DNA of 64,000 bases from Lactobacillus xylocopicola. GTDB taxonomy: Bacteria; Bacillota; Bacilli; Lactobacillales; Lactobacillaceae. The stretch spans positions 292,501 to 356,500 of the forward strand of contig NZ_AP026803.1 in assembly GCF_033096005.1 (NCBI RefSeq), read 5' to 3'. Below are positions 13,258 through 56,288 of this stretch, in pieces; the stretch's first letter is position 1; the number at the start of each line of letters is the position of its first letter. The position numbers and the translations under genes were made by a program. The notes under the pieces were generated by a model. The model made no database searches. It was not told the DNA's origin and saw only the letters and a list, made by a program, of their open reading frames with translations.

Positions 13258-13710
13258 ATGAATAATTCATCCTTAAATGAACTTGGTCCGCTAATTAAGA
13301 TTGCTAATACGCTGATTGAGAAGGAACTCAATAATCGGATAGCCCGGGCAATTACCGATTATAACCTGACCGGTCCGCAAATTACGATGATGGTTTACTT
13401 GTATGAAGCGCATGGTAAGACAATTACACAAAAAGAATTGGCCGATAAATTTGTTTTGAGTCATCCAACTATTCGCAGTGTTGTTCGGCGCTTAGAAAAG
13501 GCAAGTTTACTGAGTGCGGAACGAATGCCGGCAGATCGCCGGCAGATTAAGTTGTCTTTGACTACTGCAGGCAACAGTTTTATTGCTACTCATCTTGCTG
13601 TTATCTATGGGATTATGAATGAGGTCAACCGGCAAATCGTGCAGGGGCTCAGCCCGGCTGATCTTGAGCGAATTACCAAAATTTTGCAGCAGATTATTAA
13701 GAACTTCTAA
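13258..13710 (+). CDS. MarR family transcriptional regulator
   Basis: This is a 150-residue winged-helix regulator. The DNA-binding core runs from about 55 to 110 (ITQKELADKFVLSHPTIRSVVRRLEKASLL, then the wing AERMPADRRQIKLSLT). The ends supply dimerisation helices. ATG 13258 follows AAGGAGG. One palindromic operator lies before it and a second between it and the downstream MFS remnant, so it probably represses itself and the pump, released by a small toxic ligand. Confidence 0.93.
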   Translation: MNNSSLNELGPLIKIANTLIEKELNNRIARAITDYNLTGPQITMMVYLYEAHGKTITQKELADKFVLSHPTIRSVVRRLEKASLLSAERMPADRRQIKLSLTTAGNSFIATHLAVIYGIMNEVNRQIVQGLSPADLERITKILQQIIKNF

Positions 13711-13732
13711 TGTTCTTTTTTATCGACATAAG

Positions 13733-13746
13733 TGTAGCTTACTACA
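13733..13746. promoter_or_regulatory. MarR-type operator O2
   Basis: TGTAG-CTTA-CTACA is the second copy of the inverted repeat found at 13227-13240. It sits in the 52-base gap between marR and the MFS remnant, 5 bases before the AGGAG of that gene. Confidence 0.72.
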
Positions 13747-13762
13747 TAAAAGGAGAGAGAAA

Positions 13763-14164
13763 ATGATTAGTGCCAGCATCCCTAAAATGACAAACCGGCA
13801 ACGCAACTTGATGATGGTCGTTCTGCTATTTGGAGCCTTTGTTGCTCTTTTGGCAGAGACTTTTTTGAATAATGCGCTACCCACAATAATGCATGCTTTT
13901 AGCGTCAGTCAAGCGACTGCCCAATGGCTGACGACGGCCTACTTATTGGTCGTTGGTTTAATGATTCCAATGTCCGCGTGGATTTTTAATTCATTTAGCC
14001 TGAAGGTCAATTATTTGACGATGATGGCCATCTTTTTTAGCGGATCTGTAGTCTGCGCGCTTGCCGTCGGTTACCACTGGGGCTTTATCCTAATGATCAG
14101 CTTTGTGCTAGTGGGACTAGTCTTGTCGTTTTTCTTGCCAACAGCTAAGGAAGAGCACAAGTAA
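13763..14164 (+). pseudogene. MFS drug exporter (DHA2/LmrB-like) with large internal deletion
   Basis: The 133-residue frame begins as a DHA2-type drug pump: FVALLAETFLNNALPTIMHAF (TM1) and QWLTTAYLLVVGLMIPMSAW (TM2), then a third helix. It then passes directly into a typical C-terminal end of these pumps (YHWGFILMISFVLVGLVLSFFLP, then a short charged tail). Intact relatives are about 450-480 residues with 14 helices, so roughly ten helices are missing with the frame preserved. The start, ribosome site and MarR operator remain intact. It cannot be a normal pump; a residual small membrane protein may still be made. Confidence 0.85.
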
Positions 14165-14245
14165 TACTATTAAGTAGTTATGCTTTACACCCAAATCATT
14201 TTGCTTGAGCAAAAAGCAGTATTAGGCAATTTTTTAACCTAAAAT

Positions 14246-14286
14246 AAAAGCCCAGCCATACCTAAGTTGGTATAGCGGGCTTTTTT
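14246..14286. terminator. Bidirectional terminator
   Basis: AAAAGCCC and CCATACC pair with GGTAT and GGGCTTTTTT in an imperfect stem. It separates the MFS remnant from the convergent dehydrogenase gene. Confidence 0.85.
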
Positions 14287-14296
14287 GTGTGTTAAC

Positions 14297-15259
14297 TTAG
14301 TTAACCACGTTCATTTCTTGGCCATTGAGGAAGGCTCGCAAATTATCAAGCACAATCCCGAGCAGCCGGTTACGAGTTTCACGGGGGGCCCAGGCAATGT
14401 GCGGCGTAATATAGCAGTTCTGTGCGGCTAATAATGGACTAGTTGCTGGAATCGGTTCGCGCCCAGCCACATCAACACCGGCGGCGCCAACTTTACCACT
14501 AGCAAGGGCAGCAGCTAAGTCGGCCTCCTTAATCAGGCCACCGCGGGCAGTATTAATGATGATAACGCCGTCTTTCATCTGACTAAGAGACTCTTGATTA
14601 ATCATTTCGGTAGTTTCGGGTGCCTGCGGAACGTGCAGACTGATGATGTCTGCGCGTTTATACAACTCATCAAGGTCAACCTGCCTAACGTATTCCGGAA
14701 GGTCAGCTTTAGGCCGGTGATTATAGAAAATCACGTTCATTGAAAAAGCGTGGCCAATTTCGGCCACCTTTTGGGCAATACTACCAAAACCAATGAGGCC
14801 AAGTGTCTTGCCTGATAGTTCCATTAATGGCGTAGCCCAAAAAGTAAAGTCAGGATTGCTCGACCACTTTCCTTGGTGGACTAACTCGTTGTGCAAACCG
14901 ACTTGACTGGTGATTTCAAGCAGCAGGGCAAAAGTAAACTGAGCAACGGCCTCGGTGCCGTAGGTCGGGATATTAGTCACGGGGATGCCAGCAGCTCGGG
15001 CGGCCACCGTATCGATCACGTTATAGCCCGTTGCAGTCACCCCGATGTACTTAAGCTTGGGTGCGGAAGTGATGACTGTTTGGTCCAGCGGGGTCTTGTT
15101 GGTTAAGACTATTTCTGCGTCACCAATCCGGTTGAGAATTTCGGTGTCGTTGTCCACAGGTGTCCGATCGTAAAAAGTACATTCGCCTAATTCTTTAAGC
15201 GGTGCCCAGTCTAGATCTCCAGGATTTAAGGCGTAACTATCCAAATTTACAATTTTCAT
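14297..15259 (-). CDS. D-2-hydroxyacid dehydrogenase (glycerate/hydroxypyruvate reductase-like)
   Basis: This 320-residue NAD(P)-dependent enzyme reduces 2-keto acids to D-2-hydroxy acids. It has the Rossmann motif GFGSIAQKVA (about 160), the NTARGGLI motif with catalytic Arg, a conserved Glu in GREPIP and the TPHIAW motif with catalytic His near the C-terminus. It resembles glycerate dehydrogenase (HprA-type) more than D-lactate dehydrogenase. ATG 15259 lies after GAGGTAAG. It stands alone. Substrate is not determined by sequence. Confidence 0.92.
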   Translation of the reverse strand: MKIVNLDSYALNPGDLDWAPLKELGECTFYDRTPVDNDTEILNRIGDAEIVLTNKTPLDQTVITSAPKLKYIGVTATGYNVIDTVAARAAGIPVTNIPTYGTEAVAQFTFALLLEITSQVGLHNELVHQGKWSSNPDFTFWATPLMELSGKTLGLIGFGSIAQKVAEIGHAFSMNVIFYNHRPKADLPEYVRQVDLDELYKRADIISLHVPQAPETTEMINQESLSQMKDGVIIINTARGGLIKEADLAAALASGKVGAAGVDVAGREPIPATSPLLAAQNCYITPHIAWAPRETRNRLLGIVLDNLRAFLNGQEMNVVN

Positions 15260-15372
15260 TTTTCTTACCTCATTAGAAAATTAGTTCCTCTTCTGTCTTC
15301 TAGTTTACTATAATTTTCCAGGTTAACTATAATAAAAAATCACTTTATGAATAAACTGAATCTTGCGGATAT

Positions 15373-15401
15373 TTGACAGTATTTTTGAATAATTCTACAA
15401 T
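15373..15401 (+). promoter_or_regulatory. Promoter of the zinc-ribbon operon
   Basis: TTGACA (15373-15378), a 17-base spacer and TACAAT (15396-15401). This would leave a 5' leader of about 110 bases before the gene at 15521. Confidence 0.65.
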
Positions 15402-15520
15402 TATTGGATATACTGCTTTTTCACAATAAGTTGATAAAGTAGAGAAATAAAAGTGGTTTATTTGTTGTTTTATAATTATCTGTATTGTCAATATAAGATA
15501 AGTTAGAGAAGGAGTTATGA

Positions 15521-16366
15521 ATGAAAAAATGTCCTAAATGCGGTGCCACAATGGAAGCCGATGTCAATTTTTGCACAGCCTGTGGAACTGATTTACGCGG
15601 AGTAAAAGCAATCCCAAAGACGCAGCAGGCACCACTTAAGCAGCAGGAAGAGCCCTCGGTTCAGCCGCAACAAGTGGAGGCTAGTCAGTCAGCAAACAAT
15701 CAGGCTAGTGGCCAAACCACCGGTAAGGCAAGAAGCTGGGGCGACTATTGGCAATGGTGCCTTGATTCTTGGAAAAATCCAGCGAACAACACGGTGCAAG
15801 CTGAAAGCTGGTACGGCTGGGTGACTATTCTACTGGTCGACTTACTAATTGTTTTGGGCCTATACTTCTGTGCCAACACGCTACTTCATGCTGCGATTAG
15901 TTTTTCAAATCACTTTAATGAAGCGGCACAAGGCCTCAGCATGGTCGATTTTTCCTTTGGGATCGTTTTAAAAGTGCTTCTGTTTATTCTGTTATATGAA
16001 GTAATTATGATTGGCAGTACTTATTTGGCTCACAAGTTTATTTATGATCGAAAAGTGGCACTACTAGACTTTGTCAATCGCAGCGCCCATGCGAGCAACT
16101 TGAACCTGATTTTTGCCGCCATCTTCTTTTTATTAATGTTGATGGGGCCTGGCAGTATTGTGCCCGCTGTAATTTTATTAGTGGTAATTTTAATGCTGTT
16201 CTCAGTGGGTCAACAAGTAGTCTTGCTTAGTGATGAAGGTGCAAAGCGGGACAAAGTCTATGGCTGTCTGATTGCTCTGGGAATCAATTTTGTCGGGATG
16301 TTAATCTTGAATGCGCTACTTTTTCAGACTATTATCGGACAAATGATGTCTTTTGGTAGAATGTAG
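15521..16366 (+). CDS. Zinc-ribbon membrane protein
   Basis: The 281-residue protein starts with a CPKCG...CTACG zinc ribbon (about 4-25) on the cytoplasmic side. A Gln/Pro-rich linker (30-70) and about five transmembrane helices (100-280) follow. Such zinc_ribbon_2 plus Yip1-like or DUF6574-like membrane proteins are common in lactobacilli and lack a known role. ATG 15521 follows GAAGGAG. It is paired with the zinc-ribbon gene 11 bases downstream, so the two products probably act together at the membrane. Confidence 0.8.
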   Translation: MKKCPKCGATMEADVNFCTACGTDLRGVKAIPKTQQAPLKQQEEPSVQPQQVEASQSANNQASGQTTGKARSWGDYWQWCLDSWKNPANNTVQAESWYGWVTILLVDLLIVLGLYFCANTLLHAAISFSNHFNEAAQGLSMVDFSFGIVLKVLLFILLYEVIMIGSTYLAHKFIYDRKVALLDFVNRSAHASNLNLIFAAIFFLLMLMGPGSIVPAVILLVVILMLFSVGQQVVLLSDEGAKRDKVYGCLIALGINFVGMLILNALLFQTIIGQMMSFGRM

Positions 16367-16377
16367 GGGTGAAGAGA

Positions 16378-17778
16378 ATGAATGAAAGTCAATTTTGCCC
16401 TAATTGTGGTCAAAAGGTCGACGCTAAGGCGGAGTTCTGTCCCAATTGTGGGAAGCAACTCAAGGTGAAGGCAGCAAATCAAGCGCATCGTACCAAGAAC
16501 GTGCGAGCAACCAATTCGCAACCAGTTGTAACCCAGCAACAAGCAACGGTTGCGAAGAAGCGGCCGCCAATGAAGCAGAAAAGCAAAATTATTTTGAGTA
16601 GTCTAGCTGCTCTGGTAGTCGTTTTTGTTATCTTTTATGCCTGGGGATCCAACCATTATCAGCGCAATAACCAGCTTGCACAGATAAACGCAGCGTTGAA
16701 GAATCCACGTCAGTCTTTGAGCCAGTACGTTACTTCTGATAACCCGAATGTGCATGTGACGGATGCGGCATTGAAGCCGACGCAGAAGTATTATGCAGAA
16801 AATTATGAAAAAGCAAATAAAATGGCGGATGACCTTAAATACAGTGATCAGTCTGACGACGTTAGTCTGGTCAGGAGTGGTCATTACTTCTTATTTTTCC
16901 CCAAATACAAGCTGCAATTCAAGACTTACACCCCGCAGATTAAGACTAATCACGCCAATTCCAGTATTTATGTTAACGGTCAAAAATTTGGTGGTATTGA
17001 TGGCAGCGGCGGGGAATATTATAAGAAGATTACGCCGCTTTTTCCAGGCAAGTATCATATCGTAGTCAAGTCTATTGCCTCTGGCCATGAATTATCTGCT
17101 GACAAGAGCATGCTGATTGATTCCAACCAAGCCATTAATATGGACATTAAGACGGTCAACTTTATGGTTAAAAGCATGCCGGGCGCCGCTGTTTATATAA
17201 ATGACAAGAAAGTCGGGATACTAAACAGAAGAGGTGCTAAAAATTTCAAAGAATATCCTGCAACCGCTGATATGAAGATTTACGTTGAAGCTACAATCGC
17301 AGGAAAAACCATTAAGTCGAAAATGGTTAATTATGATGATTTAGGCTTCGATGATGACGATGATAGTAGCAGTAATGTCATTAAGCCAGAATGGCCCGGA
17401 CTAATCAGCCAGGATGATGCAGAGAGTATCTTACAGGACAACTTTAATTCTCCAGACGAAGATGCCTTTATCGGCGGTGCGGAGAACAAAGGCTACCAGG
17501 ATCTGCACACACAAGAGGCCAAGTTTAGAAATAGTGATGAAATTATTGATTTTTCAATGGAGTGTAGCATCGTCTCAATTGCACCAGCTCCTAATAACTG
17601 TAGTAGCGTTACGTATAAGATAACTTATACCTTTGAACATGATGATTATGAGCATAAGCAGGTCTTGCTCTACTCGGGCGGTCTGTTCCACCAAGTCGGT
17701 GATGAGGATGATGGTAAGCAAAAGATTAAGTCAATTGGTAATGGTAAGGTGATTAGCGACAAGAAGTACGATAATTAG
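16378..17778 (+). CDS. TcaA/YvbJ-like zinc-ribbon membrane-anchored protein
   Basis: The 466-residue protein has a CPNCG-x12-CPNCG zinc ribbon (about 7-26), a basic linker and a single transmembrane helix (IILSSLAALVVVFVIFYAW, about 68-86). A large extracellular part follows, with repeated beta domains containing SSIYVNGQKFGG and AAVYINDKKVG. This matches the TcaA family plan (cytoplasmic zinc ribbon, one helix, exposed repeats), linked in staphylococci to glycopeptide response and wall stress. ATG 16378 after AGGGGTG is preferred to GTG 16369. An Asp-rich stretch lies near residue 325. Confidence 0.8.
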   Translation: MNESQFCPNCGQKVDAKAEFCPNCGKQLKVKAANQAHRTKNVRATNSQPVVTQQQATVAKKRPPMKQKSKIILSSLAALVVVFVIFYAWGSNHYQRNNQLAQINAALKNPRQSLSQYVTSDNPNVHVTDAALKPTQKYYAENYEKANKMADDLKYSDQSDDVSLVRSGHYFLFFPKYKLQFKTYTPQIKTNHANSSIYVNGQKFGGIDGSGGEYYKKITPLFPGKYHIVVKSIASGHELSADKSMLIDSNQAINMDIKTVNFMVKSMPGAAVYINDKKVGILNRRGAKNFKEYPATADMKIYVEATIAGKTIKSKMVNYDDLGFDDDDDSSSNVIKPEWPGLISQDDAESILQDNFNSPDEDAFIGGAENKGYQDLHTQEAKFRNSDEIIDFSMECSIVSIAPAPNNCSSVTYKITYTFEHDDYEHKQVLLYSGGLFHQVGDEDDGKQKIKSIGNGKVISDKKYDN

Positions 17779-17824
17779 GAGTAAATATTTTTAGCAAAAA
17801 GCAAGTTGCTTACTTAATAAAATC

Positions 17825-17862
17825 AAAGCCTGTCATTTCAAGTTTGAGTTGACAGGCTTTTT
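17825..17862 (+). terminator. Terminator of the zinc-ribbon operon
   Basis: AAAGCCTGTCA pairs with TGACAGGCTTT around TTTCAAGTTTGAGT, then Ts. Confidence 0.92.
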
Positions 17863-17984
17863 CTTGTGGGCAGTTATTGGTAACTTTAGATGAGCTAGGC
17901 AGCCAAGTTAAAACTACTTTAGTGGTTGATTATTTTAAGTAAAAATATTAATATTTTAGCCAAATGAAAAAATGGGGTTTTTTG

Positions 17985-18857
17985 ATGCACCAAGAAAGCT
18001 ACGGACCAAAATTTCGTCAAATCAGAAGGCAAAAGGGCTTAAGCATAGTTGAAGCAGCTGCAGGGATAGTCTCTAAATCAGGACTTGCACGTTGGGAAAC
18101 TGGTAAAGGAAGTTTATCCTTTGAGCAGGTCTTAAGTTTGCTGGTGGAAAATAATATTCAACCGATCGAATTTATCCAGAAAAATATTTTTCCAGATTTA
18201 GATACAATCGTTCAAACCGTTAACCAAGCTCACGATAGCAATGAAGTAGCCATCCTAAAGGAACATGCTGTTAAAGCAGTCGCAAATTATCAGCTGGATC
18301 CCCAAGATAAGGCTAATTTATTTAAAGCTGCAATAGCCTGCAATTATTATCAAGACTTGACTGCAGAAAATTTGTTTCCCAAGATAGCGCAACTTAAGTT
18401 AAAATTGTATTTTTCAAAAATAGTTGCAGAGAATAACTATTGGGGTTTTGAAAGTATTTTTTTCTTCGTAAATACGGCCTTATTGTTTGAACCTGCTGAT
18501 GTAAGTTCTTACGCTGAAGACTTGATCTTGTTTATTAAAGACGAAAATCTCTCTGCTAACGACTGGTATCCCTATATTATAAATGGTTTGCTCAATCTGG
18601 TATTTGCTTTAATAAAGAAGGATCCGAAACCAGCGCATAAATTGCTGTCAACAATAAGTAAGTTGAAGAATATAGACTATTATTCGCTGGCAAAGATTAG
18701 GATTAAGTTCATGCACTGCTTGCTGAATTATATTGACGATAAAAACGAGACACAAGTCCAAAAAATATTCGCTGATTTGGATTTTTTTGGTATGCAGCCA
18801 TTGAACAAGCAGTTCCAACGGGCTTTTTCACAGATAAAAAGTATTTATGAAGATTAA
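17985..18857 (+). CDS. Rgg/GadR/MutR family regulator
   Basis: The 290-residue protein has an N-terminal Xre-type helix-turn-helix (YGPKFRQIRRQKGLSIVEAA, then GIVSKSGLARWETGKGSLSFEQV, about 5-60). A C-terminal all-helical repeat domain of the Rgg type follows, which in characterised members binds short secreted peptides. ATG 17985 is preferred because family members start just before the QESYG region, but an ATG at 17964 is also possible; neither has a strong ribosome site. It lies 117 bases upstream of the secreted-protein/ABC cassette in the same direction and probably controls it. No clear short pheromone gene was found. Confidence 0.85.
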   Translation: MHQESYGPKFRQIRRQKGLSIVEAAAGIVSKSGLARWETGKGSLSFEQVLSLLVENNIQPIEFIQKNIFPDLDTIVQTVNQAHDSNEVAILKEHAVKAVANYQLDPQDKANLFKAAIACNYYQDLTAENLFPKIAQLKLKLYFSKIVAENNYWGFESIFFFVNTALLFEPADVSSYAEDLILFIKDENLSANDWYPYIINGLLNLVFALIKKDPKPAHKLLSTISKLKNIDYYSLAKIRIKFMHCLLNYIDDKNETQVQKIFADLDFFGMQPLNKQFQRAFSQIKSIYED

Positions 18858-18974
18858 TTGCTATATTAATCAAAAATAGCTTCCCAAAACTGGGAAAAAC
18901 CAAAATTGGCTTTATTTTTTGTGCTATATTTATAAAGTTGTTTATTTAAGATATTTATTTTTGGAGGAATTAAA

Positions 18975-19403
18975 TTGTCATTTTTTAAAAAACATGTTTG
19001 GGGTAAAAGTATGATTGCTGCAACAACTGTATTGGCATTGGGCAGTGCGTCAGTTGTGGGTGCAGCTAAGAAAAGCAAGGGTACGTGGACGGTTACACCT
19101 GAGTCTGTCGCTGCTCATGGGACATGGAGTTCATATGGCTCCGGCAACGTTAAAAAAACCAATTCTAATGACGCATCATTTAATGGTGATGTCGTTCCAA
19201 ATTGGACAGGTTACAATGTAAGACTAATTAATAGTAAGGCTTCACCTCGATCTTCTTTTACCAAATTAAAAAAGAATAAAACCACCTATGCTGGAGAAAA
19301 CACAGGTAAAAAGCGCTACATTTATTATGCGGATGTCCGTTCCAAACGTATAGAACCTAATAAAAGTAGAGTGAAATTGCATTTTAGTTCAGACCACAAG
19401 TAG
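18975..19403 (+). CDS. Secreted cysteine-free small protein, bacteriocin-like candidate
   Basis: The 142-residue product starts at TTG 18975, 7 bases after GGAGG. A Sec signal peptide (about 1-31: MSFFKKHVWGKS, hydrophobic core, cleavage near VVGAA) precedes a mature region of about 110 residues that is basic, lacks Cys and is rich in Ser, Lys, Asn and Tyr (GTWTVTPESVAAHGTWSSYG at the start, KKRYIYYADVRSKR later). The layout with membrane proteins and an ABC ATPase recalls lactococcin-972-type operons, but I see no convincing sequence match. It could be a bacteriocin, a signal or a surface factor. Confidence 0.7.
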   Translation: MSFFKKHVWGKSMIAATTVLALGSASVVGAAKKSKGTWTVTPESVAAHGTWSSYGSGNVKKTNSNDASFNGDVVPNWTGYNVRLINSKASPRSSFTKLKKNKTTYAGENTGKKRYIYYADVRSKRIEPNKSRVKLHFSSDHK

Positions 19404-19448
19404 TTTTTAATTTATCATCTGTGTTAAGAGAGCCGAGGTTAAAAATTA

Positions 19449-20264
19449 ATGCCAAAAAGAACTAAAAAAATCACGATCATTGCACTGGTATTGTACGCAT
19501 TATTAATAACGTGGCACGTGTTTGCGGCTATAAAAAATGATGTAAAGCCACAAGGCACCGGTTTGGAATCAGCTTTGTATCTTTTTTTGAGTGTGCAACC
19601 TGGTGGCTTCCATGAAAGTGTTATTGTGGATCTTACTGAGATGGCGTTAATGTCGTCCGCAGGTGCGGGTTTTTATCTTTATCTAAAAAATAATAATACG
19701 TTTAGTAATGTCCAGCAAAGAATAAATTACTTTGGTTTTTTTAAGCAGGGAATCAAGCACACTTTTTTAGGAGCTGTGAGTCTATCCCTATTAACTAATC
19801 TGTACGAACTGATTTTGATTAATTGGTTTTACTACCCCTTTGTATATAAGGTAAAGAGTGCTTTCTTGAGCAATTCTGGTAACACATATTTTTCATCTAA
19901 TAGCTTAGTATATATAATTTCTTATATTGCTCTAGCTGCGATCGGCTGGGGAATCTTTGCCCTTCTGGTTTTTGGGATAGGTCTCTTTGTAAAAAAGAAC
20001 GCGCTGATTTTAACAATTGGTCCGATTACTGGTCTACTTTTGATTATTCTGCCAATACTTGGTAGTAAAGGTAGCAAAGCCTTGCAAGTTCTTTCAATTT
20101 CCAGCTTTTTCTATACATTGATTTCACCAGGACAAGAGAACTCTTCGGTCCAATATCAACCTATAAATAGTATTTTAGCTTATATGCTTGCTGTTGTTAT
20201 CTACTTATTGATTGCACTAGTACTGATTAAGCTGTGGCAAAAACAACAGGTGAATAAGGGGTAA
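19449..20264 (+). CDS. Polytopic membrane protein, probable ABC-2-like permease subunit
   Basis: A 271-residue protein with about six hydrophobic helices (near 8-28, 62-80, 100-125, 148-180, 190-210, 245-262). No catalytic motif is visible. It follows the secreted-protein gene and precedes a second membrane protein and an ABC ATPase, with only 3 bases to the next gene. The likely role is one half of an export or self-protection transporter. No specific family is recognised. Confidence 0.72.
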   Translation: MPKRTKKITIIALVLYALLITWHVFAAIKNDVKPQGTGLESALYLFLSVQPGGFHESVIVDLTEMALMSSAGAGFYLYLKNNNTFSNVQQRINYFGFFKQGIKHTFLGAVSLSLLTNLYELILINWFYYPFVYKVKSAFLSNSGNTYFSSNSLVYIISYIALAAIGWGIFALLVFGIGLFVKKNALILTIGPITGLLLIILPILGSKGSKALQVLSISSFFYTLISPGQENSSVQYQPINSILAYMLAVVIYLLIALVLIKLWQKQQVNKG

Positions 20265-20267
20265 GTA

Positions 20268-20852
20268 ATGCGAGTTAAACGAACAAGCTTCCGTCTGATA
20301 TTAATCGGACTTTTAATCATTGCACTCGGTTTATGGGGTGGTTTTTATACTATAACGAATAATGATGTTAAAGATATGGAAGTAGTTAATGCCTATATTA
20401 ACCGCAGTCTTGTTCCATTGTACCTTCAGCCTATAGTTTTAGTATTGTTGTACAGCCAAATACTACCTTTTCGGCGTATTCGATTGTTTGTCGGGGTTCG
20501 CCGGCAAACGGAACAAATGGTCATGAAGCTAATGGGATTGGCAATAGTATATTGTTGCATATTTGTAGTTGGCTTGTGTGTACCGTATTTATTAACTGGT
20601 TGGCCCTTGTTCAGAAATGGTAGCCCAATAGTTGGATCAGGCATAATTCTACTACACATCGGAGTATTTTTATTTTTGGCTTGGCTATTAGTAGGAGCTT
20701 ATAATATTCCACATCCATATCTTTTGTTATTTGCGGTGATTATTTTGAGCTTACTGTATAATTTCTATGTCGAAGAAAAGTTGTTAATATTTTATAGTCC
20801 ATTATATGATCCTTTATATCGGGCAATACATAAAATTTATGGCGGATACTAA
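20268..20852 (+). CDS. Small polytopic membrane protein of the ABC cassette
   Basis: The 194-residue protein has about five transmembrane helices (near 9-28, 45-62, 82-105, 118-145, 148-165) and a basic cytoplasmic loop (FRRIRLFVGVRRQTEQ) after the second helix. It starts 3 bases after the upstream stop, so translation is probably coupled, and lies 11 bases before the ATPase gene. It is best read as the second membrane half of the transporter. I recognise no named family. Confidence 0.7.
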   Translation: MRVKRTSFRLILIGLLIIALGLWGGFYTITNNDVKDMEVVNAYINRSLVPLYLQPIVLVLLYSQILPFRRIRLFVGVRRQTEQMVMKLMGLAIVYCCIFVVGLCVPYLLTGWPLFRNGSPIVGSGIILLHIGVFLFLAWLLVGAYNIPHPYLLLFAVIILSLLYNFYVEEKLLIFYSPLYDPLYRAIHKIYGGY

Positions 20853-20863
20853 GGAGGTATGTT

Positions 20864-21463
20864 ATGTTAAAAATCACAGACTTAAAAAAATCATTTGGGC
20901 GTAAAGAGGTATTACAAGGGGTTTCTTTGACCGCAGAACCCGGTGAATTAATTCACATTTCTGGTATTAATGGCTCGGGAAAATCGACTATTTTTAAAAT
21001 TATTACAGGTCTATTGAAGGCAGATAGCGGTGAAGTGATTAGCGGTAACGAAGATATCGTTGGCGCTTTAATTGAAAATCCCGGTTTTTTGGAATATGAA
21101 TCGGCGATGACTAATTTGCGTTTCTTGGGTGATCTCAAACACCGTTTTGATGAGGAGAAGACTAAAGATTTGCTCCAGCATTTTGACCTTGATCCTGATG
21201 ATACTCAGGCAATCGCAAAGTATTCTGTGGGAATGCGGCAAAAAGTTGGTATTATTCAAGCCGTAATGGAAGATCAAAATATTATTTTGTTGGATGAACC
21301 AACACGGGGAATCGATCAAGAGAGTATCAAACAGTTTGCTGTTTTGTTAAATAACTTGAAGCGAGAAAATAAAACGGTAATAGTAGCTAGTCATGATCAA
21401 ATCGACGAGATCAATTATGATCAACGTTTGCAATTGATAAACGGCACTCTTAGTGATGAATAG
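20864..21463 (+). CDS. ABC transporter ATP-binding protein
   Basis: The 199-residue ATPase has Walker A GINGSGKST (34-42), Q-loop region near 71-75, signature YSVGMRQ (120-126), Walker B ILLDEP (141-146) and the H-loop His177. The degenerate signature (SVGM instead of SGGQ) is typical of the BcrA/LanF/CcmA-like group that drives peptide or antibiotic efflux and self-immunity. It lacks the long C-terminal extension of drug-resistance ATPases. The start follows AAGGAGG. It is last in the Rgg-linked cassette. Confidence 0.92.
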   Translation: MLKITDLKKSFGRKEVLQGVSLTAEPGELIHISGINGSGKSTIFKIITGLLKADSGEVISGNEDIVGALIENPGFLEYESAMTNLRFLGDLKHRFDEEKTKDLLQHFDLDPDDTQAIAKYSVGMRQKVGIIQAVMEDQNIILLDEPTRGIDQESIKQFAVLLNNLKRENKTVIVASHDQIDEINYDQRLQLINGTLSDE

Positions 21464-21603
21464 ACTGTAAAAGCCGGAGTGTAATTCATTTTTTGTTGGC
21501 GCAAATTACCGGTAAAGCGGGTATTATTGAAATATTTTTTTGATAAAGTATTTTAAAAATATTAGAAAATACTTGCATTAAGCTGACGATGATATTATAG
21601 TTG

Positions 21604-21615
21604 CCCTAATTAGGG
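21604..21615 (+). promoter_or_regulatory. Palindrome overlapping a ribosome site
   Basis: The perfect 12-base palindrome CCCTAATTAGGG shares its last bases with the GGGAGG ribosome site of the gene at 21626. It could hide the site by pairing, or bind a dimeric repressor. Confidence 0.35.
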
Positions 21616-21625
21616 AGGTCTTAAT

Positions 21626-21979
21626 ATGAATTCGTCTAACCAGCAAATAACCAAGGGCTTATTTGAAAAATACCAAGAAAAACAGAATAAAGTTTTTGGA
21701 CAAAAGATTTTTCCGTTGAGTGCAACCTACATCTTTTCGCTAAAAAATGGGCTGACGCTTAATGTAACAGAATACCCGGAATTAAAGCAACTAGGTTACT
21801 GGATACAGCCAGCTGATCAAATCAATCTACGAGTTTGGTCACATCTGAGCCAACCAGCTTTGGCTCAAAAATTTAGTGAAATCACGGGGATTAAAAGTGA
21901 GCAATATTATCTTGGTGCAGTTTCAGGGGTGCAGGATTTGTGGTCAGCTAACAGTGCCGCTGGTAATGATTTAAGCTAA
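21626..21979 (+). CDS. Hypothetical protein
   Basis: This 117-residue soluble protein has no signal peptide, membrane helix or motif that I recognise. An N-terminal helix (KGLFEKYQEKQNKVFGQ) is followed by beta-rich sequence (ATYIFSLKNGLTLNVTEYPE, then INLRVWSHLSQPALAQKF). The ATG follows GGGAGG, and codon use looks like that of its neighbours, so it is probably real. It lies alone between the ABC cassette and the phnD-like gene, with a promoter-like TTGCAT near 21572. Confidence 0.6.
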   Translation: MNSSNQQITKGLFEKYQEKQNKVFGQKIFPLSATYIFSLKNGLTLNVTEYPELKQLGYWIQPADQINLRVWSHLSQPALAQKFSEITGIKSEQYYLGAVSGVQDLWSANSAAGNDLS

Positions 21980-22114
21980 GAAATTAAAATAACAAATACT
22001 TCAGTACGACTGAAAAAGAAGTCTATTAGTATAAAGCAAAAAGTAGCTTCCATAATTAGCAACTATGTGTTATTATTTATTAGATTATTTGGGCGAAGAA
22101 AGGAAGGCGCTACA

Positions 22115-22255
22115 ATGAGCAATGAAATTATTGGTTCAAGTGCTATGTTGAGCATGGTAGCGGCTGCTTTTTATCACTTCAAAAAATCGCTTAATGTTTT
22201 AATGATTGCAGTTAATAGAAGACTTAATGTTTATCACTTTTGTGATAAATGTTAA
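22115..22255 (+). CDS. Possible 46-residue peptide overlapping a terminator
   Basis: The ATG at 22115 follows AGGAAGG by 7 bases and encodes a peptide with two short hydrophobic stretches (SSAMLSMVAAAFYHF and LNVLMIAVN). Its 3' third forms the 5' arm of the 22219-22265 hairpin, and its stop lies in the 3' arm. It may be a leader peptide for the downstream lipoprotein gene, a small membrane peptide or a chance frame. Low confidence. Confidence 0.3.
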   Translation: MSNEIIGSSAMLSMVAAAFYHFKKSLNVLMIAVNRRLNVYHFCDKC

Positions 22256-22265
22256 GTCTTTTTTA
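22219..22265 (+). terminator. Strong terminator/attenuator upstream of the phnD-like gene
   Basis: A 19-bp stem (AAGACTTAATGTTTATCAC with GTGATAAATGTTAAGTCTT, two G-T pairs) around TTTT is followed by a T-run. It stands 35 bases before the ATG at 22301, with no promoter visible in between, so it may attenuate that gene. Confidence 0.88.
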
Positions 22266-22300
22266 TTGCTCACATAATTTGTCGGGCTAGGAGGATTAAG

Positions 22301-23227
22301 ATGCCGAAGTTCAAGAAAATTTTAGTTGGAACCATTGCGGTGCTGGGCACAGTGTTACTTGCCGGCTGCTCAAATTCCGGTAAAAAACAGGGTGAAAGCG
22401 ATACCCCTACGTCGCTGAATGTGCAATTTGTCCCTAGTGTAGCTGCCGATAAAATGGAAGCGCGCGCTAAACCGCTAGAGAAAATGCTATCAAAACGTCT
22501 GGGAATTCCCGTTCACGTTACAGTTTCGACTGATAACAATGCAGTAATCGAAGCGATGAAATCAAAAAAGGTTGACGTTGGCTTCTTGCCAGCAGATGCT
22601 TATGTCCAAGCCCACAAGCAAAATGCCGCTGACGTTTTGCTCCAATCTGAGCGTTACGGCTTGAAAGCACCAAGTGGCACCTGGACCAAGGAACTCGTTC
22701 ATACTTTGCGGTCGGAAATTTTAGTCAGCAAGGGATCACCAATTAAGAGTTGGAAGGACTTGAAAGGAAAGTCAATTTCCATTCAAAGTCCGACGTCAAC
22801 TAGTGGTTATATTTTTCCAATTGCTGAGTTAAAACAAAAGGGACTGGATGTTAAACGTAGCTGCAAACTTGTTACCGTTACTGGACATGATCAAGGTGTA
22901 CTCAATGTTTTGAATAAGGACACTGATGCAGCCTTCGTTTTTGAAGATGCGCGTAACAATGTCTTGCGTGACAACCCCAAGATTAAGTCCCAAGTTGTGC
23001 CAATTTATTATACACGTCCTATTCCTAATGACACTATTTCGGTTCTACCTAGTATGTCCAAAGCCTTCAAAGAAAAACTTGCCCGGGCTTTCATTGCCAT
23101 CGGCAAGTCAAAAGAGGGTAAGAAAGTAATCGAGAGCGTTTATGACCAGGAAGGCTATATTAGAGCTAAAGATAGCGACTATGATATTGTTCGCAAATAT
23201 CAAAAGATCGCCGAAACGGTTAAATAA
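22301..23227 (+). CDS. PhnD-type phosphonate/phosphite/phosphate ABC substrate-binding lipoprotein (orphan)
   Basis: The 308-residue lipoprotein has a type II signal peptide with lipobox LLAGCS (Cys23). The mature periplasmic-binding-like fold shows the PhnD family features: SLNVQFVPSVAADKMEARAKPLEKMLSKRLG, GFLPADAYV, the SPTSTSGY motif and DAAFVFEDAR. It would capture an oxyanion or phosphonate outside the membrane. No phnC ATPase or phnE permease lies next to it, which is unusual, so it must use components encoded elsewhere or have another job. ATG follows AGGAGG. Confidence 0.88.
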   Translation: MPKFKKILVGTIAVLGTVLLAGCSNSGKKQGESDTPTSLNVQFVPSVAADKMEARAKPLEKMLSKRLGIPVHVTVSTDNNAVIEAMKSKKVDVGFLPADAYVQAHKQNAADVLLQSERYGLKAPSGTWTKELVHTLRSEILVSKGSPIKSWKDLKGKSISIQSPTSTSGYIFPIAELKQKGLDVKRSCKLVTVTGHDQGVLNVLNKDTDAAFVFEDARNNVLRDNPKIKSQVVPIYYTRPIPNDTISVLPSMSKAFKEKLARAFIAIGKSKEGKKVIESVYDQEGYIRAKDSDYDIVRKYQKIAETVK

Positions 23228-23254
23228 TATTGGTTAAGATAAATTGTTAATGGG

Positions 23255-23294
23255 AAGCACACTATTTGTAGAAGCAAAATAATGTGCTTTTTGT
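23255..23294 (+). terminator. Terminator after the phnD-like gene
   Basis: AAGCACACTATTT pairs with AAATAATGTGCTT with one mismatch, followed by TTT. Confidence 0.8.
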
Positions 23295-23436
23295 TGTTTA
23301 CATTACACGAAAAAGACTAAATGTGTTTCTCTGTATTTGGTAAAAGCATAAAAAATGGTTTAATAAGCTTAAGCATATAGGTAGAAAGTGTAGCAAGTAA
23401 ACTAAACCTTTTGGCATTATTGAACATATTCAAACA

Positions 23437-23464
23437 TTGACAAACACAAAAGAACATTTATACT
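23437..23464 (+). promoter_or_regulatory. Promoter and possible LacR repeats upstream of lacR-lacAB
   Basis: TTGACA (23437-23442), a 16-base spacer and TATACT (23459-23464). The repeated elements CAAACA (23431 and 23441) and GAACAT (23422 and 23452) overlap it and could be direct-repeat sites for the DeoR-family protein encoded next. Confidence 0.55.
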
Positions 23465-23508
23465 AAATAATGAAGTTAGTTGCTAATCTAGTTTAAAAGT
23501 AGGTAACC

Positions 23509-24264
23509 ATGCTAAAAAGTGAAAGACTTAAGACGATTTTACAGATTGTAAATACGCAAAAATTTGTAACTGTAGATGAACTGGCGCAAACGCTAAAGGT
23601 TTCTGATATGACCATAAGACGGGACCTTAATGAACTGCATCGGGCAAGCAAAATTTTGCGCGTTCATGGTGGGGCCCAACTCTTATCCGATCAAACTCGC
23701 ATCGAAAAGAGCTACAAGCAAAAGCGTGAAATCCATAGTAAAGAAAAATTGGAAGTGGCTAAGCGCGCCTGCAACCTGATTCATGAAAATGATTCAATCT
23801 ACGTGGGGCCTGGAACGACTTTAGAGTTAATGGTTGCCAACCTTAAAGTTAAGCATCTGCGAATTGTGACCAACTCGCTACCGGTTTTTGAAGTTGCCAA
23901 AAATAGTGCTCAAGACTATGACCTAATTATGATTGGTGGCTCTTACAGGAGAATCAGCGGTGCCTTTTTGGGGGCGCTGGCAAATAGTGAATTGGCAACA
24001 ATGTCATTTTCAGCCGGCTTTGTGGGGGTCAATGGTATTAAAGATGCTTCTATGACGACAGCTAACTTGGAGGAGGGCCAGACCGAAGGAATTGGATTAG
24101 ATCATTCACAAATTAAGTTTGTGGTTGCGGATTATTCCAAGCTGGATCACAGCGACTTTCATCATTTTTATGATTTGCATAAGGTTGATGGACTAGTTAC
24201 TAACCGCGGAATTGAGCCTGAACTAGAAAAACATTACAGTCAGTATACGACTGTCTATAAATAG
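23509..24264 (+). CDS. lacR: DeoR/GlpR family sugar regulator (LacR-like)
   Basis: The 251-residue repressor has an N-terminal DeoR helix-turn-helix ([26 protein letters not shown], about 18-45) and a C-terminal sugar-phosphate-sensing domain ([15 protein letters not shown], then the [13 protein letters not shown] stretch). Direct linkage to lacA and lacB identifies it as the likely repressor of the tagatose-6-P pathway, with tagatose-6-P as known inducer in lactococcal LacR. ATG 23509 follows the weak site AAAGTAGG. The symbol is assigned by context. Confidence 0.88.
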
Positions 24265-24287
24265 TTTTACGGAGAGGAGTTTCAACT

Positions 24288-24716
24288 ATGAAGGTTGTCA
24301 TTGGCAGCGATAAGGCGGGTTTTGCCTTGAAAGAAAAAGTTAAAAAATACTTGAAAGATCATCAATATGAGGTTCTAGATGTGACCGAGGAAGCAGCGGC
24401 AGACTTTGTCGACTCAAGCTTAAAGGTAACTCGTGAAGTATTAGACAACGGTATTAAAAAGGCCGTGATGTTCGATGAATATGGCGTGGGTTCTGCGATG
24501 GCTTCAAACAAGGTCAAAGGAATGGTTACGGCTAATGTTAATGAAGAACGAACCGCTCACATGACCGCGATGCACAATGGTGCTAAGGCGATTGCACTTG
24601 GTAGTGGAATTGTTGGCGAAAAGTTAGCGTATTCAATTGTTCAGCATTATTTAGATACAAATTATGCTGGTGGTCGCCACCAAATTCGCCTAAACATGTT
24701 AGAAGAAATGATTTAA
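24288..24716 (+). CDS. lacA: Galactose-6-phosphate isomerase subunit LacA
   Basis: This 142-residue RpiB/LacAB-fold protein forms a hetero-oligomer with LacB that converts D-galactose-6-P to D-tagatose-6-P. The start [22 protein letters not shown] is typical of LacA, as are the [16 protein letters not shown] and [14 protein letters not shown] segments. Like other LacA subunits it lacks the RpiB catalytic Cys, which LacB supplies. It lies 12 bases before lacB and 23 bases after the DeoR gene. No lactose PTS (lacFE) or phospho-beta-galactosidase is nearby. Confidence 0.95.
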
Positions 24717-24728
24717 GGAGGTTTGAAA

Positions 24729-25304
24729 ATGTTAGATCATGATAGACCACAGCCAGAATTTGTTGATGCCAAGATTGACCAGCACATGATTATTGCCTTG
24801 GGTAATGATCACATTGTAACTGCAGTAAAAATGGCTCTTTCTGACCATTTAAAAGATGAAGGTTACCGTGTGATTGATGAAGGTACGCATGATAACTCAA
24901 GAACACATTATCCAATTTATGGTAAACGTGTGGCTGAAGACGTTGCTGATGGTCGGGCGGATTTAGGTATCGTTCTTTGCGGCACTGGGATTGGCATTTC
25001 AACGGCGGCTGATAAAAACGAAGGTATTCGTGCTGCCATGGTAGGAGATGCTACTCAAGCAGCATATGCGCGGCGAGAATTAAATGCCAATGTTTTGGGT
25101 TTTGGCGGTATTGTTTTAGGACGTGACTTCATTTTTGATATTGTGGATTCATTTTTGAATGCAGAGTATCACCCGACTAGCCGTAATCGGTCCTTAATTA
25201 CTAAGATTGATGGTATTGCTAAGCCCAACCCAAATCAAAAAGATAACGCTCACTTCTTTGATGAGGAAAATAAGAAGTGGGCCGCAGGCGTATATCACGA
25301 CTAA
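24729..25304 (+). CDS. lacB: Galactose-6-phosphate isomerase subunit LacB
   Basis: The 191-residue partner of LacA carries catalytic-type sequence [24 protein letters not shown], with the active-site Cys, and [19 protein letters not shown] at the N-terminus. The C-terminal extension ([23 protein letters not shown]) is characteristic of LacB. ATG 24729 lies 6 bases after AAGGAGGT; an in-frame TTG at 24723 is inside the ribosome site. A terminator follows at 25338. Confidence 0.95.
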
Positions 25305-25337
25305 AAAATAAAGCAAAAATAAAATTTAATCGCACAA

Positions 25338-25368
25338 GGAGCCATGAAGTTGATCACGGCTCTTTTAT
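25338..25368 (+). terminator. Terminator after lacB
   Basis: GGAGCCATGA pairs with TCACGGCTC (one G-T/C mismatch region), followed by TTTT. Confidence 0.75.
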
Positions 25369-25469
25369 TTATATTAATCGAATGAATATCGTCTATCAGA
25401 CCAAACGACTAAGGGAGATAATTATGTGCCATAAATAGTGAAAGAAGTACAAAAAAAGTTTGAATCAAA

Positions 25470-25516
25470 TTGCAATTAACCGCTTTCTTTGCTACACTCA
25501 TAAGTGGTATCAACCA
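25470..25516 (+). promoter_or_regulatory. Promoter, cre-like site and GntR operator of the aga regulator gene
   Basis: TTGCAA (25470-25475), a 17-base spacer and TACACT (25493-25498) form a promoter. A cre-like sequence on the minus strand (GAAAGCGGTTAA, 25476-25487) falls in the spacer. The inverted repeat TGGT-ATCA-ACCA (25505-25516) at the transcript start has the form of NagR/YvoA-type GntR sites, fitting autoregulation. Confidence 0.6.
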
Positions 25517-25538
25517 GTTATAAAAAGGAGGTGGGTCA

Positions 25539-26255
25539 ATGCCGAAACCGCTTTATCAGCAGGTTATTTTTGACCTAGAAAAACAGATCAGAAAAATGAA
25601 ACCAAATGCGCGCTTACCTAGTGAACGGCAATTACTGGTTAAATATGGCGTTAGCCGCAATACAATCAGGTTGGCCTTGCAGGAGCTAGAAGAGCGTGGA
25701 TTAATTTATCGGCTTCATGGTAAGGGGACTTTTGTTTCAAGTGTTTTTCTAAACCAACCCAATATTGGTGGTATGTATTCTTTTTCAGAGGAAGTTACGC
25801 GCGCTGGTCAGAAGGCGACTACGCAGAATCGGAGTTTGGAATTAGTTGTTCCCAGTCAGCATATCATGGAACAGTTAAACATGGCAGCTAATGAGCGTGC
25901 CTACAAGCTTGTGCGTTTGCGGTTAGCTAATAATGAGCCGCGGATTTACAGCACGACCTACCTGCCAGAAAAACTTTTTCCGGACTTAAAGATGGCTGAT
26001 TTGCAGGAAGAAACACTTTATGGCGTGTTAAAGCGTAAATACAATCAAATTAGTGTGATGGCCTTTGAGGATGTGCAAGCGGTTAGTCTAAATAAAGAGG
26101 AGAGCTCCTATCTAGATGAGAAGATGGGTTCATCAAGTTTGAAGATTTTCCGTAAAACCATTAATGATAAAAATGTTCCGGTTGAATTTACGATTTCATT
26201 GGCACGGGGCGATAAGTTTATTTACCGCTCAAGACAATATAATAAGTTACTTTAG
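25539..26255 (+). CDS. GntR/HutC-family regulator with UTRA domain (AgaR/NagR-like)
   Basis: The 238-residue regulator has an N-terminal winged helix (LPSERQLLVKYGVSRNTIRLALQELEERGLIYRLHGKGTF region, about 24-65) and a C-terminal UTRA ligand domain (GGMYSFSEEVTRAGQKATT onward). UTRA regulators of this kind sense sugar phosphates such as GlcN-6-P or GalN-6-P. It sits 20 bases before agaS and upstream of the GalNAc-class PTS, so it probably controls both. ATG 25539 follows AGGAGG; a self-operator lies at 25505. Confidence 0.9.
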   Translation: MPKPLYQQVIFDLEKQIRKMKPNARLPSERQLLVKYGVSRNTIRLALQELEERGLIYRLHGKGTFVSSVFLNQPNIGGMYSFSEEVTRAGQKATTQNRSLELVVPSQHIMEQLNMAANERAYKLVRLRLANNEPRIYSTTYLPEKLFPDLKMADLQEETLYGVLKRKYNQISVMAFEDVQAVSLNKEESSYLDEKMGSSSLKIFRKTINDKNVPVEFTISLARGDKFIYRSRQYNKLL

Positions 26256-55106: not shown

Positions 55107-56288
55107 ATGGTTAATCTTAAAAAATATATGCGTAAGGGCTTAGCCGAGGTCGAACCGAATCCGATTCTAAAATTTGCGGATTATGCTGGTAAAATCCCCG
55201 ATGTGGTTAAATTCACTTTGGGGGAACCCGATTTTAATACGCCCGACCACATTAAGGAAGCTGCTAAGCAGTCAATCGCAGACAACCGTTCCCACTATGC
55301 TCCGTCTAATGGAACAATGGGCTTAAGGACTGCAGTTAGCAACTTTTTACGCCATAAATATGGTCAAGAGTATGATCCGGCTACTGAGGTTTTAGTCACT
55401 ACCGGGGTTACGGAGTCAATCTTTGACACGGTCATGGCTACGCTGAATCCTGGCGATGTGATGGTTGTTCCAACCCCAATGTTTTCGCTCTATATGTCAG
55501 ATGAAAGTGTCATTAATGAAGGTGTGGAAGTTGTTGAAGTGGATACTTCGAACACCCAGTTCAAGCTGACACCTGAACAGTTGCAGGAAGTGCTTGATCA
55601 ATATGGTGACCGGGTGCGGATGCTAGTGATGAACTATCCCACTAATCCAACTGGAGTAATGTACAGTCAAAAGGAACTTGATGACTTAGCCGCTGTTATC
55701 AGAAACAAGCCAATTTTTGCCTTGTGTGATGAAATATACAGTGAGCTCAACTATGACCAGCCCCATGCTTCGATGGAGAAGTCACTGCATGACCAGGTAA
55801 TCCTGATGAATGGCGTGTCTAAGGCTTGGGCAATGACTGGTTATCGGATAGGAATTGTTTGTGCGCCCAAAGATATTTTGCTCGAGATTGCGAAAGTGCA
55901 CCAGGCGGTCGTGACGACCGAACCAACCCCAATGCAAGATGCGGCTGAAGAAGCGTTTGCTAATGGGATGGATGATGCTGTACCAATGAAGGCTGAATTT
56001 AAGAAACGGCGCGATGTATTGTATGAAGGTTTAATGAAGCTGGGCTTTAAATGCGTCAAGCCGCAAGGGGCATTCTACTTATTTGCTAAAATTCCAGCTC
56101 ACTTGGAACAGGATGATACTAAATTTATTTATGACTTAGTCGACCAAGCGCGCGTGGCAGTTACAGCCGGGTCTTGCTTTGACAAGGGGGGAGCTGGTTA
56201 TGTCCGTTTCTCCTATGCGGTTTCAATGCCACAGATCAAAGAGGGCTTGCGGCGACTTGAGCAATATATGCGGGAAATTAAGCAATAA
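55107..56288 (+). CDS. Class I/II PLP aminotransferase (PatA/AraT-like)
   Basis: The 393-residue fold-type I aminotransferase has the Schiff-base Lys in NGVSKAWAMTGYRIG (about 235-249), the NYPTNPTG motif (about 175), DEIYSELNY and the C-terminal FSYAVSMP with the substrate-binding Arg in YVRFSYA. It resembles aromatic or N-acetyl-diaminopimelate aminotransferases, and either amino-acid catabolism or lysine synthesis is possible. ATG 55107 follows AGAAAGTTTGGTG. Single gene. Confidence 0.9.
   Translation: MVNLKKYMRKGLAEVEPNPILKFADYAGKIPDVVKFTLGEPDFNTPDHIKEAAKQSIADNRSHYAPSNGTMGLRTAVSNFLRHKYGQEYDPATEVLVTTGVTESIFDTVMATLNPGDVMVVPTPMFSLYMSDESVINEGVEVVEVDTSNTQFKLTPEQLQEVLDQYGDRVRMLVMNYPTNPTGVMYSQKELDDLAAVIRNKPIFALCDEIYSELNYDQPHASMEKSLHDQVILMNGVSKAWAMTGYRIGIVCAPKDILLEIAKVHQAVVTTEPTPMQDAAEEAFANGMDDAVPMKAEFKKRRDVLYEGLMKLGFKCVKPQGAFYLFAKIPAHLEQDDTKFIYDLVDQARVAVTAGSCFDKGGAGYVRFSYAVSMPQIKEGLRRLEQYMREIKQ

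What the first reader, a model, noticed from the sequence alone, without database searches (positions are those of the whole stretch)
17985..21463. Rgg-linked cassette: secreted Cys-free protein, two unusual membrane proteins and a BcrA-like ATPase
Seen: an Rgg-type regulator, then a TTG-started Sec-exported 142-residue protein without cysteines, two polytopic membrane proteins of 271 and 194 residues with 3 bases between them, and a 199-residue ABC ATPase with a SVGM signature, all on one strand. Known: Rgg proteins often control peptide or bacteriocin genes, and BcrA/LanF-type ATPases with ABC-2 membrane partners give export or self-immunity. Inference: a quorum-regulated antagonistic or signalling system in which the transporter exports or protects against the secreted protein. 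Neither membrane protein nor the secreted protein matches a family I can name.
Basis: partly seen in the sequence, partly recalled or inferred. Interest (0 to 1): 0.78.

Follow-up and report, generated by a model that had tools for sequence, protein, structure and literature searches.

The report
Candidate secreted bacteriocin with immunity transporter
A Lactobacillus carries a small exported protein of unknown family next to an unusual multi-part membrane pump that elsewhere sits beside known bacteriocin genes, so the pair looks like a new kind of bacterial weapon and its self-protection, though nothing has been tested at the bench.

Summary
In detail: an Rgg regulator, a TTG-started Sec-exported Cys-free protein (SEC, 142 aa), two membrane proteins (M1, M2) and an ABC ATPase lie on one strand. 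SEC, M1 and M2 match no Pfam, NCBIfam or PADLOC family. M1's model looks like an ABC-2 permease; SEC's mature part is a confident beta-sandwich without a clear relative; the ATPase has LanF-like motifs. M1-M2-ATPase, at 19 of 33 loci with a further gene (M3) that the window lacks, forms a module: 33 loci in 32 of 199 genomes searched. All 10 intact SEC genes there sit directly upstream of the module. The module lacks an intact SEC at 23 of 33 loci and is under purifying selection in one SEC-less clade. In two genomes it adjoins a lactococcin-972-type gene set; in one of these that set fills the slot where SEC sits in two close relatives, behind a related Rgg. Best reading: SEC is a new Sec-dependent bacteriocin-like protein and the module its self-immunity transporter, kept as cross-immunity where SEC was lost. 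Export of SEC by the pump is unlikely. The Rgg link is partial (11 of 33 loci). No activity is shown. New variant of a known kind.

The parts
17985..18857 (+). Rgg-type regulator (ORF opens at 17964; ATG at 17985 likelier by its G-rich upstream stretch, judged by eye)
   Evidence: Pfam PF21259 Rgg_C 31 bits (cut-off 27) and PF01381 HTH_3 30.4 (cut-off 23); one of 5 Rgg_C matches in the genome
18880..18897 (.). inverted repeat TTCCCAAAACTGGGAA between Rgg and SEC; operator or weak terminator, unresolved
   Evidence: sequence; listed as terminator-like on the minus strand
18963..18967 (+). GGAGG ribosome-binding site of SEC
   Evidence: sequence
18975..19403 (+). SEC: candidate bacteriocin-like secreted protein, 142 aa, signal peptide about residues 1-30 (cleavage judged by eye at VGA|A), mature part about 112 aa, Cys-free, pI about 10
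   Evidence: homologues 29-68% identical; beta-sandwich model, block pLDDT 85-95 from residue 41 on; composition and hydropathy
19449..20264 (+). M1: ABC-2-like permease subunit, 271 aa
20268..20852 (+). M2: second, smaller membrane subunit, 194 aa
   Evidence: follows M1 at the 33 module loci, at 4 of them (L026, L027, L111, L112) assigned by position only; hydropathy
20864..21463 (+). ABC ATPase, 199 aa, LanF/BcrA-like, IENP in the Q-loop region, YSVGM signature
   Evidence: PF00005; best NCBIfam TIGR03740 galliderm_ABC E 7.6e-36, below its cut-off; motif at 37 of 37 loci examined
21464..21625 (+). place where 19 of 33 loci carry M3 (about 163 aa membrane protein); no M3 or remnant here
   Evidence: tblastn of 20 M3 proteins against the window: nothing at this place (list by position shown up to base 55,320)

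Best explanation
SEC is a Sec-exported, Cys-free, mostly basic beta-sandwich protein that acts outside the cell as a bacteriocin-like antagonist of related Gram-positive bacteria, probably at the cell envelope. M1, M2 and the ATPase (with M3 where present) form an ABC-2-like transporter that protects the producer by removing SEC from the membrane or its target, as LanFEG and other bacteriocin immunity pumps do. SEC is sometimes lost and the transporter kept as immunity against SEC or related weapons. The nearby Rgg probably controls SEC. Shown: gene order, conservation, predicted folds, linkage, broken SEC genes beside an intact transporter, adjacency to lactococcin-972-type genes. Inferred: toxicity, target, immunity, Rgg control, direction of loss.
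For: (1) All 10 intact SEC genes in the 199 genomes are directly upstream of M1-M2-ATPase; the one SEC trace without the module is a broken remnant (G036). (2) The module lacks an intact SEC at 23 of 33 loci: 4 broken SEC genes (G010 and G051 by stops, G015 with its C-terminal part lost, G070 split, a draft of about 720 contigs), 1 locus with a 13-residue remnant (tblastn E 0.005) beyond a DDE transposase (G065, second locus), 18 with none. (3) One SEC-less clade keeps the transporter under purifying selection: median dN/dS 0.188, 0.144 and 0.096 for M1, M2, ATPase over 9 genomes. (4) In G008 the order is Rgg-like gene, lactococcin-972-like 100-aa gene, TIGR01654-like membrane protein, TIGR03608-like ATPase (E 7.6e-5, 1.5e-19, 5.4e-69; all three below the curated cut-offs), then M1-M2-ATP-M3; its Rgg is 48% and 42% identical to those before SEC in G038 and G025, and the three M1 proteins plus G014's form a supported clade (97/87). 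(5) In G069 the module is followed by a lactococcin-972 gene over the curated cut-off (43.1 against 32.1 bits) and a TIGR01654-like protein (E 5e-34, below cut-off). (6) ATPase motifs LanF-like. (7) M1 resembles ABC-2 type permeases. (8) SEC distances follow M1 (Pearson 0.80; 2 of 5000 permutations as high) more than M2 or ATPase (0.68 each), 11 loci. (9) A 10.4-kb stretch of a Melissococcus plutonius plasmid carries SEC-M1-M2-ATP, which fits horizontal spread. Precedent for one ABC immunity transporter shared by unrelated bacteriocins: PMC10598978 (abstract).
Against: No toxicity or immunity data. SEC is not related to lactococcin 972 by profile (15 aligned columns only), and its fold has no significant match. 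SEC is more conserved than M1 (mean distance 0.49 against 0.71), unlike a weapon in an arms race unless its target is invariant. The SEC-M1 correlation is lower than those inside the module (0.85-0.88) and shared descent could make it. Retention of the transporter alone also fits a general resistance role. 9 of the 18 SEC-free loci are one syntenic clade, so not 9 independent cases. The tree cannot tell loss from gain, and the scatter of SEC on it is no more than shuffled labels give. 4 of 15 SEC proteins are neutral to acidic (pI 7.1, 5.8, 5.1, 7.0). Five of the seven genomes with both a lactococcin-972 match and the module or part of it have them apart.
Confidence: 0.58

Rival explanations
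1. The transporter is a resistance pump against foreign bacteriocins or lantibiotics, and SEC is an extracellular helper (decoy or receptor, as the LanI lipoproteins help LanFEG), not a weapon.
For: The transporter persists without SEC; SEC and M1 distances correlate; SEC is more conserved than M1; LanF-like ATPase.
Against: SEC has no lipobox, C-terminal membrane helix or visible anchor (sequence), so it should leave the cell; in G008 the SEC slot holds a lactococcin-972-type gene set.
Confidence: 0.2
2. The cassette serves the producer's own envelope: the transporter moves a lipid or wall precursor and SEC is a secreted wall- or sugar-binding protein.
Confidence: 0.12
3. The transporter exports a peptide signal or another product under Rgg control, and SEC is an unrelated neighbour.
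For: An Rgg-like gene is nearest upstream at 11 of 33 loci; G063 has AgrC/AgrA-like genes upstream of the module.
Against: All 10 intact SEC genes adjoin the module and SEC distances follow M1; no conserved small peptide gene was noticed beside it, though ORFs under 40 aa were not listed.
Confidence: 0.07

Closest known systems
Lactococcin 972 family systems (TIGR01653 bacteriocin, TIGR01654/DUF1430 membrane protein, TIGR03608 ATPase)
   Same: Sec-type signal peptide, small secreted protein mostly without cysteine, transporter genes directly downstream; such gene sets adjoin the same module in G008 and G069
   Different: SEC has no sequence relation and is longer (142 aa against 96-131 aa for most family ORFs read); partners are M1/M2/M3 and a LanF-like ATPase, not a ~700-aa membrane protein
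LanFEG lantibiotic immunity transporters
   Same: ATPase motifs and best NCBIfam model; one ATPase with small membrane subunits
   Different: No lantibiotic genes noticed nearby; M1, M2 and M3 match no family; ATPase below the TIGR03740 cut-off
Four-component bacteriocin immunity transporters (AS-48 EFGH, Mr10EFGH; PMC10598978 abstract, PMC8538875 passages)
   Same: Several small subunits; one transporter associated with different bacteriocins
   Different: Sequence relation not tested here; the known cargoes are circular or leaderless peptides with a saposin-like fold, SEC is a signal-peptide beta-sandwich
NosFY and PmtCD ABC transporters
   Different: 8 and 13% identity; a shared fold shows no function

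Membership tests
Lactococcin 972 family bacteriocin | match to TIGR01653 or a profile built from family members | tested here: not met
   no NCBIfam match for SEC; hhalign of 15 SEC rows against 10 family rows aligns 15 columns only, probability 63
Lactococcin 972 family bacteriocin | fold of lactococcin 972 (PDB 2LGN) | tested here: inconclusive
   not among the 50 rows shown for the SEC model, which does not exclude it
Lactococcin 972 family bacteriocin | adjacent TIGR01654 membrane protein and TIGR03608 ATPase | tested here: not met
   M1 and M2 do not match TIGR01654; the window's ATPase matches TIGR03608 at 99 bits, cut-off 254.85
Sec-dependent bacteriocin (functional class) | N-terminal Sec signal peptide, small mature protein | tested here: met
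   sequence, conservation and hydropathy; cleavage site judged by eye, no signal-peptide predictor run
Sec-dependent bacteriocin (functional class) | growth inhibition of other bacteria | not testable with these tools
   needs purified protein
LanFEG immunity transporter | ATPase over the TIGR03740 cut-off | tested here: not met
   123.9 bits, cut-off 309.75
LanFEG immunity transporter | glutamate in place of the Q-loop glutamine (motif recalled; two searches found no paper) | tested here: met
   GA(L/V)IENP at 37 of 37 loci examined
LanFEG immunity transporter | ABC-2 type membrane subunits | tested here: inconclusive
LanFEG immunity transporter | lantibiotic precursor and modification genes nearby | tested here: inconclusive
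   ORFs of window 14000-26000 read by eye, seven of them scanned; none seen; rest of the genome not searched
Rgg regulator | Rgg C-terminal domain and HTH | tested here: met
   window protein: PF21259 31 bits over cut-off 27, PF01381 30.4 over 23

The most novel reading that the evidence does not exclude
SEC founds an unnamed family of Sec-exported beta-sandwich bacteriocins unrelated in sequence to lactococcin 972, and M1-M2-ATPase-M3 is an undescribed plug-in immunity transporter that serves two unrelated bacteriocin families and is kept as cross-immunity after weapon loss.
Probability: 0.42. Interest if true: 0.72.

Novelty: new variant of a known kind. Interest (0 to 1): 0.56.

Why it matters
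Few folded, Sec-dependent bacteriocins are known (recalled); [quoted passage not shown] A second family with a compact transporter, present with and without its weapon and sometimes beside lactococcin-972-type genes, offers natural plus/minus comparisons for asking what ABC immunity pumps recognise. Carriers include L. jensenii and L. hominis (human-associated, recalled) and a plasmid of a honey-bee pathogen.

Tried and rejected
SEC as a lactococcin 972 member: not supported by profile comparison or family scans. SEC as a phage or viral protein: no match in 50,697 phage records, none confirmed among 41 pattern stretches in IMG/VR, no Foldseek hit with E <= 0.001 in BFVD. Solved relatives of SEC by sequence: none useful (best E 0.7, adenosyltransferases). 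2LGN is not among the rows shown. Remnant of M3 in the window: none at its place. SEC remnants in 24 loci without an intact SEC: only G036 and the second G065 locus at E <= 0.05. A shared operator upstream of SEC: ten upstream stretches were printed and showed no evident common box (by eye only). Rfam in the window: rRNA and tRNA only. Literature: searches returned no paper holding all terms; some searches gave listings in which no title or abstract start describes this cassette. Seen: passages of PMC8538875, PMC4055356 and PMC12345188; abstract and outline of PMC10598978; nothing in full.

Limits of counts: the 199 genomes include the own one. M2 at L026, L027, L111 and L112, M1 at L027, and M3 at L027 and L112 were assigned by position; some label queries were the ORFs themselves. 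The M1 tree used 30 of the 32 rows of A3: P0010 and P0012 dropped as duplicates, P0011 and P0013 unlabelled; G010, G051, G015 and G070 with broken SEC were labelled SEC, the second G065 locus 'no'; five near-copies of the syntenic clade, L027 and the named loci were not in A3. Its 9 changes are about what shuffled labels give (224 of 500 as low). The dN/dS figures leave out pairs with dS of 0.05 or less (32, 36 and 35 of 36 pairs kept for M1, M2, ATPase). One search used 9 of the 10 intact-SEC loci (L027 left out) plus L113 and L118. The gene total for the Rgg base rate was assumed.
Full report
Observation. The cassette is as described. On the + strand lie an Rgg-type regulator (17964/17985-18857), SEC (18975-19403, TTG start after GGAGG), M1 (19449-20264), M2 (20268-20852) and an ABC ATPase (20864-21463). 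The Rgg matches PF21259 and PF01381 over their cut-offs. SEC, M1 and M2 match no Pfam, NCBIfam or PADLOC family; the ATPase matches PF00005 and, best among NCBIfam, the lantibiotic-protection model TIGR03740, below its cut-off. The window is part of a 1.64-Mb genome.

Relatives. Among 199 genomes (own included) SEC has matches in 15, M1 in 33 and M2 in 31. Reading the neighbourhoods gives 33 loci in 32 genomes with M1, M2 and ATPase adjacent; at L026, L027, L111 and L112 the M2 was assigned by position, at L027 the M1 too. Ten have an intact SEC directly upstream of M1 (G000, G055, G025, G013, G038, G072, G065, G119, G166, G095). Four have a broken SEC: G010 and G051 with in-frame stops, G015 with its C-terminal part lost and the rest in frame with a first M1 copy, and G070 split (a draft of about 720 contigs, so an error is possible). 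One (second locus of G065) has a 13-residue SEC remnant (E 0.005) beyond a DDE transposase. Eighteen have none; in G069 a transposase-like fragment (PF05598, just below cut-off) abuts M1. The reverse case, SEC without the module, is seen once, as a broken remnant in G036. M3, a further membrane protein of about 163 aa after the ATPase, is present at 19 of the 33 loci and absent at 14, the window among them. Outside this set SEC was found in 1 of 398 genomes of the class sample (the own genome) and M1 in 6 of 295 of the order sample (own genome, four already known, one new and weak; one of the known is fragmentary): in these samples the system is mostly confined to Lactobacillus and a few neighbours. 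Named carriers are L. hominis, L. jensenii, Lactobacillus sp. ESL0701 and LL6, Periweissella fabalis, Convivina intestini, an uncultured Lactobacillus, a record labelled Faecalicatena absiana, and a partial match in Leuconostoc inhae. Three Melissococcus plutonius plasmid records also carry SEC, a stretch of one read here.

Linkage to bacteriocins. In G008 a lactococcin-972-like 100-aa gene (TIGR01653 E 7.6e-5), a TIGR01654-like protein (E 1.5e-19) and a TIGR03608-like ATPase (E 5.4e-69), all three below the curated cut-offs, run straight into M1-M2-ATP-M3, with 85 bases between. The divergent Rgg before it is 48% and 42% identical to the Rgg genes before SEC in G038 and G025, and the M1 proteins of these three genomes plus G014 form a supported clade (97/87). 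So the slot between related Rgg genes and related modules holds SEC in two genomes and a lactococcin-972-type set in one; G014 has the module with neither SEC nor an Rgg in view. In G069 the module is followed by a lactococcin-972 gene over its cut-off, a TIGR01654-like protein below its cut-off, and an ABC ATPase ORF that was not scanned. Eight lactococcin-972 matches, two of them with stops, lie in the seven genomes that hold the module or part of it (G000, G008, G040, G044, G065, G069, G114); two within 5 kb of it has a rough chance of 0.0014. The own genome has two further lactococcin-972-like genes (39.4 bits, over the cut-off, and 18.7 bits, below), each followed by ORFs of about 700 aa and an ATPase-like 219 aa, judged by eye; two of its four other Rgg_C genes lie beside them.

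Evolution. On the M1 tree the SEC label needs at least 9 changes over 28 labelled rows, 6 forced by well supported branches, about as scattered as shuffled labels. With stops, a transposase and remnants at several loci, repeated loss is the simplest reading, though the tree cannot give direction. In the nine-genome SEC-less clade (beside galactose genes in the one locus scanned, L092; the others alike by ORF lengths) median dN/dS is 0.188, 0.144 and 0.096 for M1, M2 and ATPase. SEC distances correlate with M1 (0.80) more than with M2 or ATPase (0.68 each) over 11 loci, but less than the module's parts with each other (0.85-0.88), and SEC is more conserved than M1.

Interpretation. SEC has its own signal peptide, so the transporter is not needed to export it. 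The order weapon-then-ABC-transporter, the transporter's persistence where SEC is broken or absent, the LanF-like ATPase and the slot shared with a lactococcin-972-type set point to self-immunity. Published parallels: orf2-orf3 of lactococcin 972 as putative immunity transporter (PMC4055356, passages), DUF1430 protein as likely immunity in mediterrocin with a Sec-type signal peptide (PMC12345188, passages), dedicated ABC immunity in general (PMC8538875, passages), and one ABC transporter shared by unrelated enterocins (PMC10598978, abstract). Toxicity, target and immunity are inferred. The main rival is a resistance pump with SEC as helper. Rgg control is plausible: an Rgg-like gene is the nearest labelled gene upstream at 11 of 33 loci, in at least three lineages. 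But the Rgg_C domain passed its cut-off only for the window's regulator, scored just below for L101 and was not matched by L016's. Quorum control is not shown.

Noticed in passing
L148 5018-8143 and L149 8523-11680 (own genome, outside the window): Two lactococcin-972-like genes (117 aa, over the family cut-off; 99 aa, below it), each followed by an ORF of about 700 aa and an ATPase-like ORF, each near an Rgg_C gene.
   Followed up: partly
L022 7871-9990: In G015 the start of SEC is in frame with a first M1 copy and a second intact M1 follows; L023 and the Melissococcus plasmid (L113) also have extra or decayed M1 copies upstream of SEC.
   Followed up: partly
window 21626-21979: 117-aa ORF after the cassette with no significant match in Pfam or NCBIfam.
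   Followed up: no
window 22301-23227: Lipoprotein-like protein matching PF12974 phosphonate-binding.
   Followed up: no
window 15521-17778: Two adjacent proteins beginning with paired CxxC zinc-ribbon-like motifs and a membrane segment, upstream of the Rgg (by eye).
   Followed up: no
L105 4216-6241: In G063 AgrC/AgrA-like genes precede the module, with no Rgg or SEC.
   Followed up: no
L121: SEC relative in a record labelled Faecalicatena absiana; the label may be wrong or the gene transferred.
   Followed up: no
window 13619-14164: 181-aa ORF resembling a shortened multidrug (MFS-type) transporter, judged by eye.
   Followed up: no
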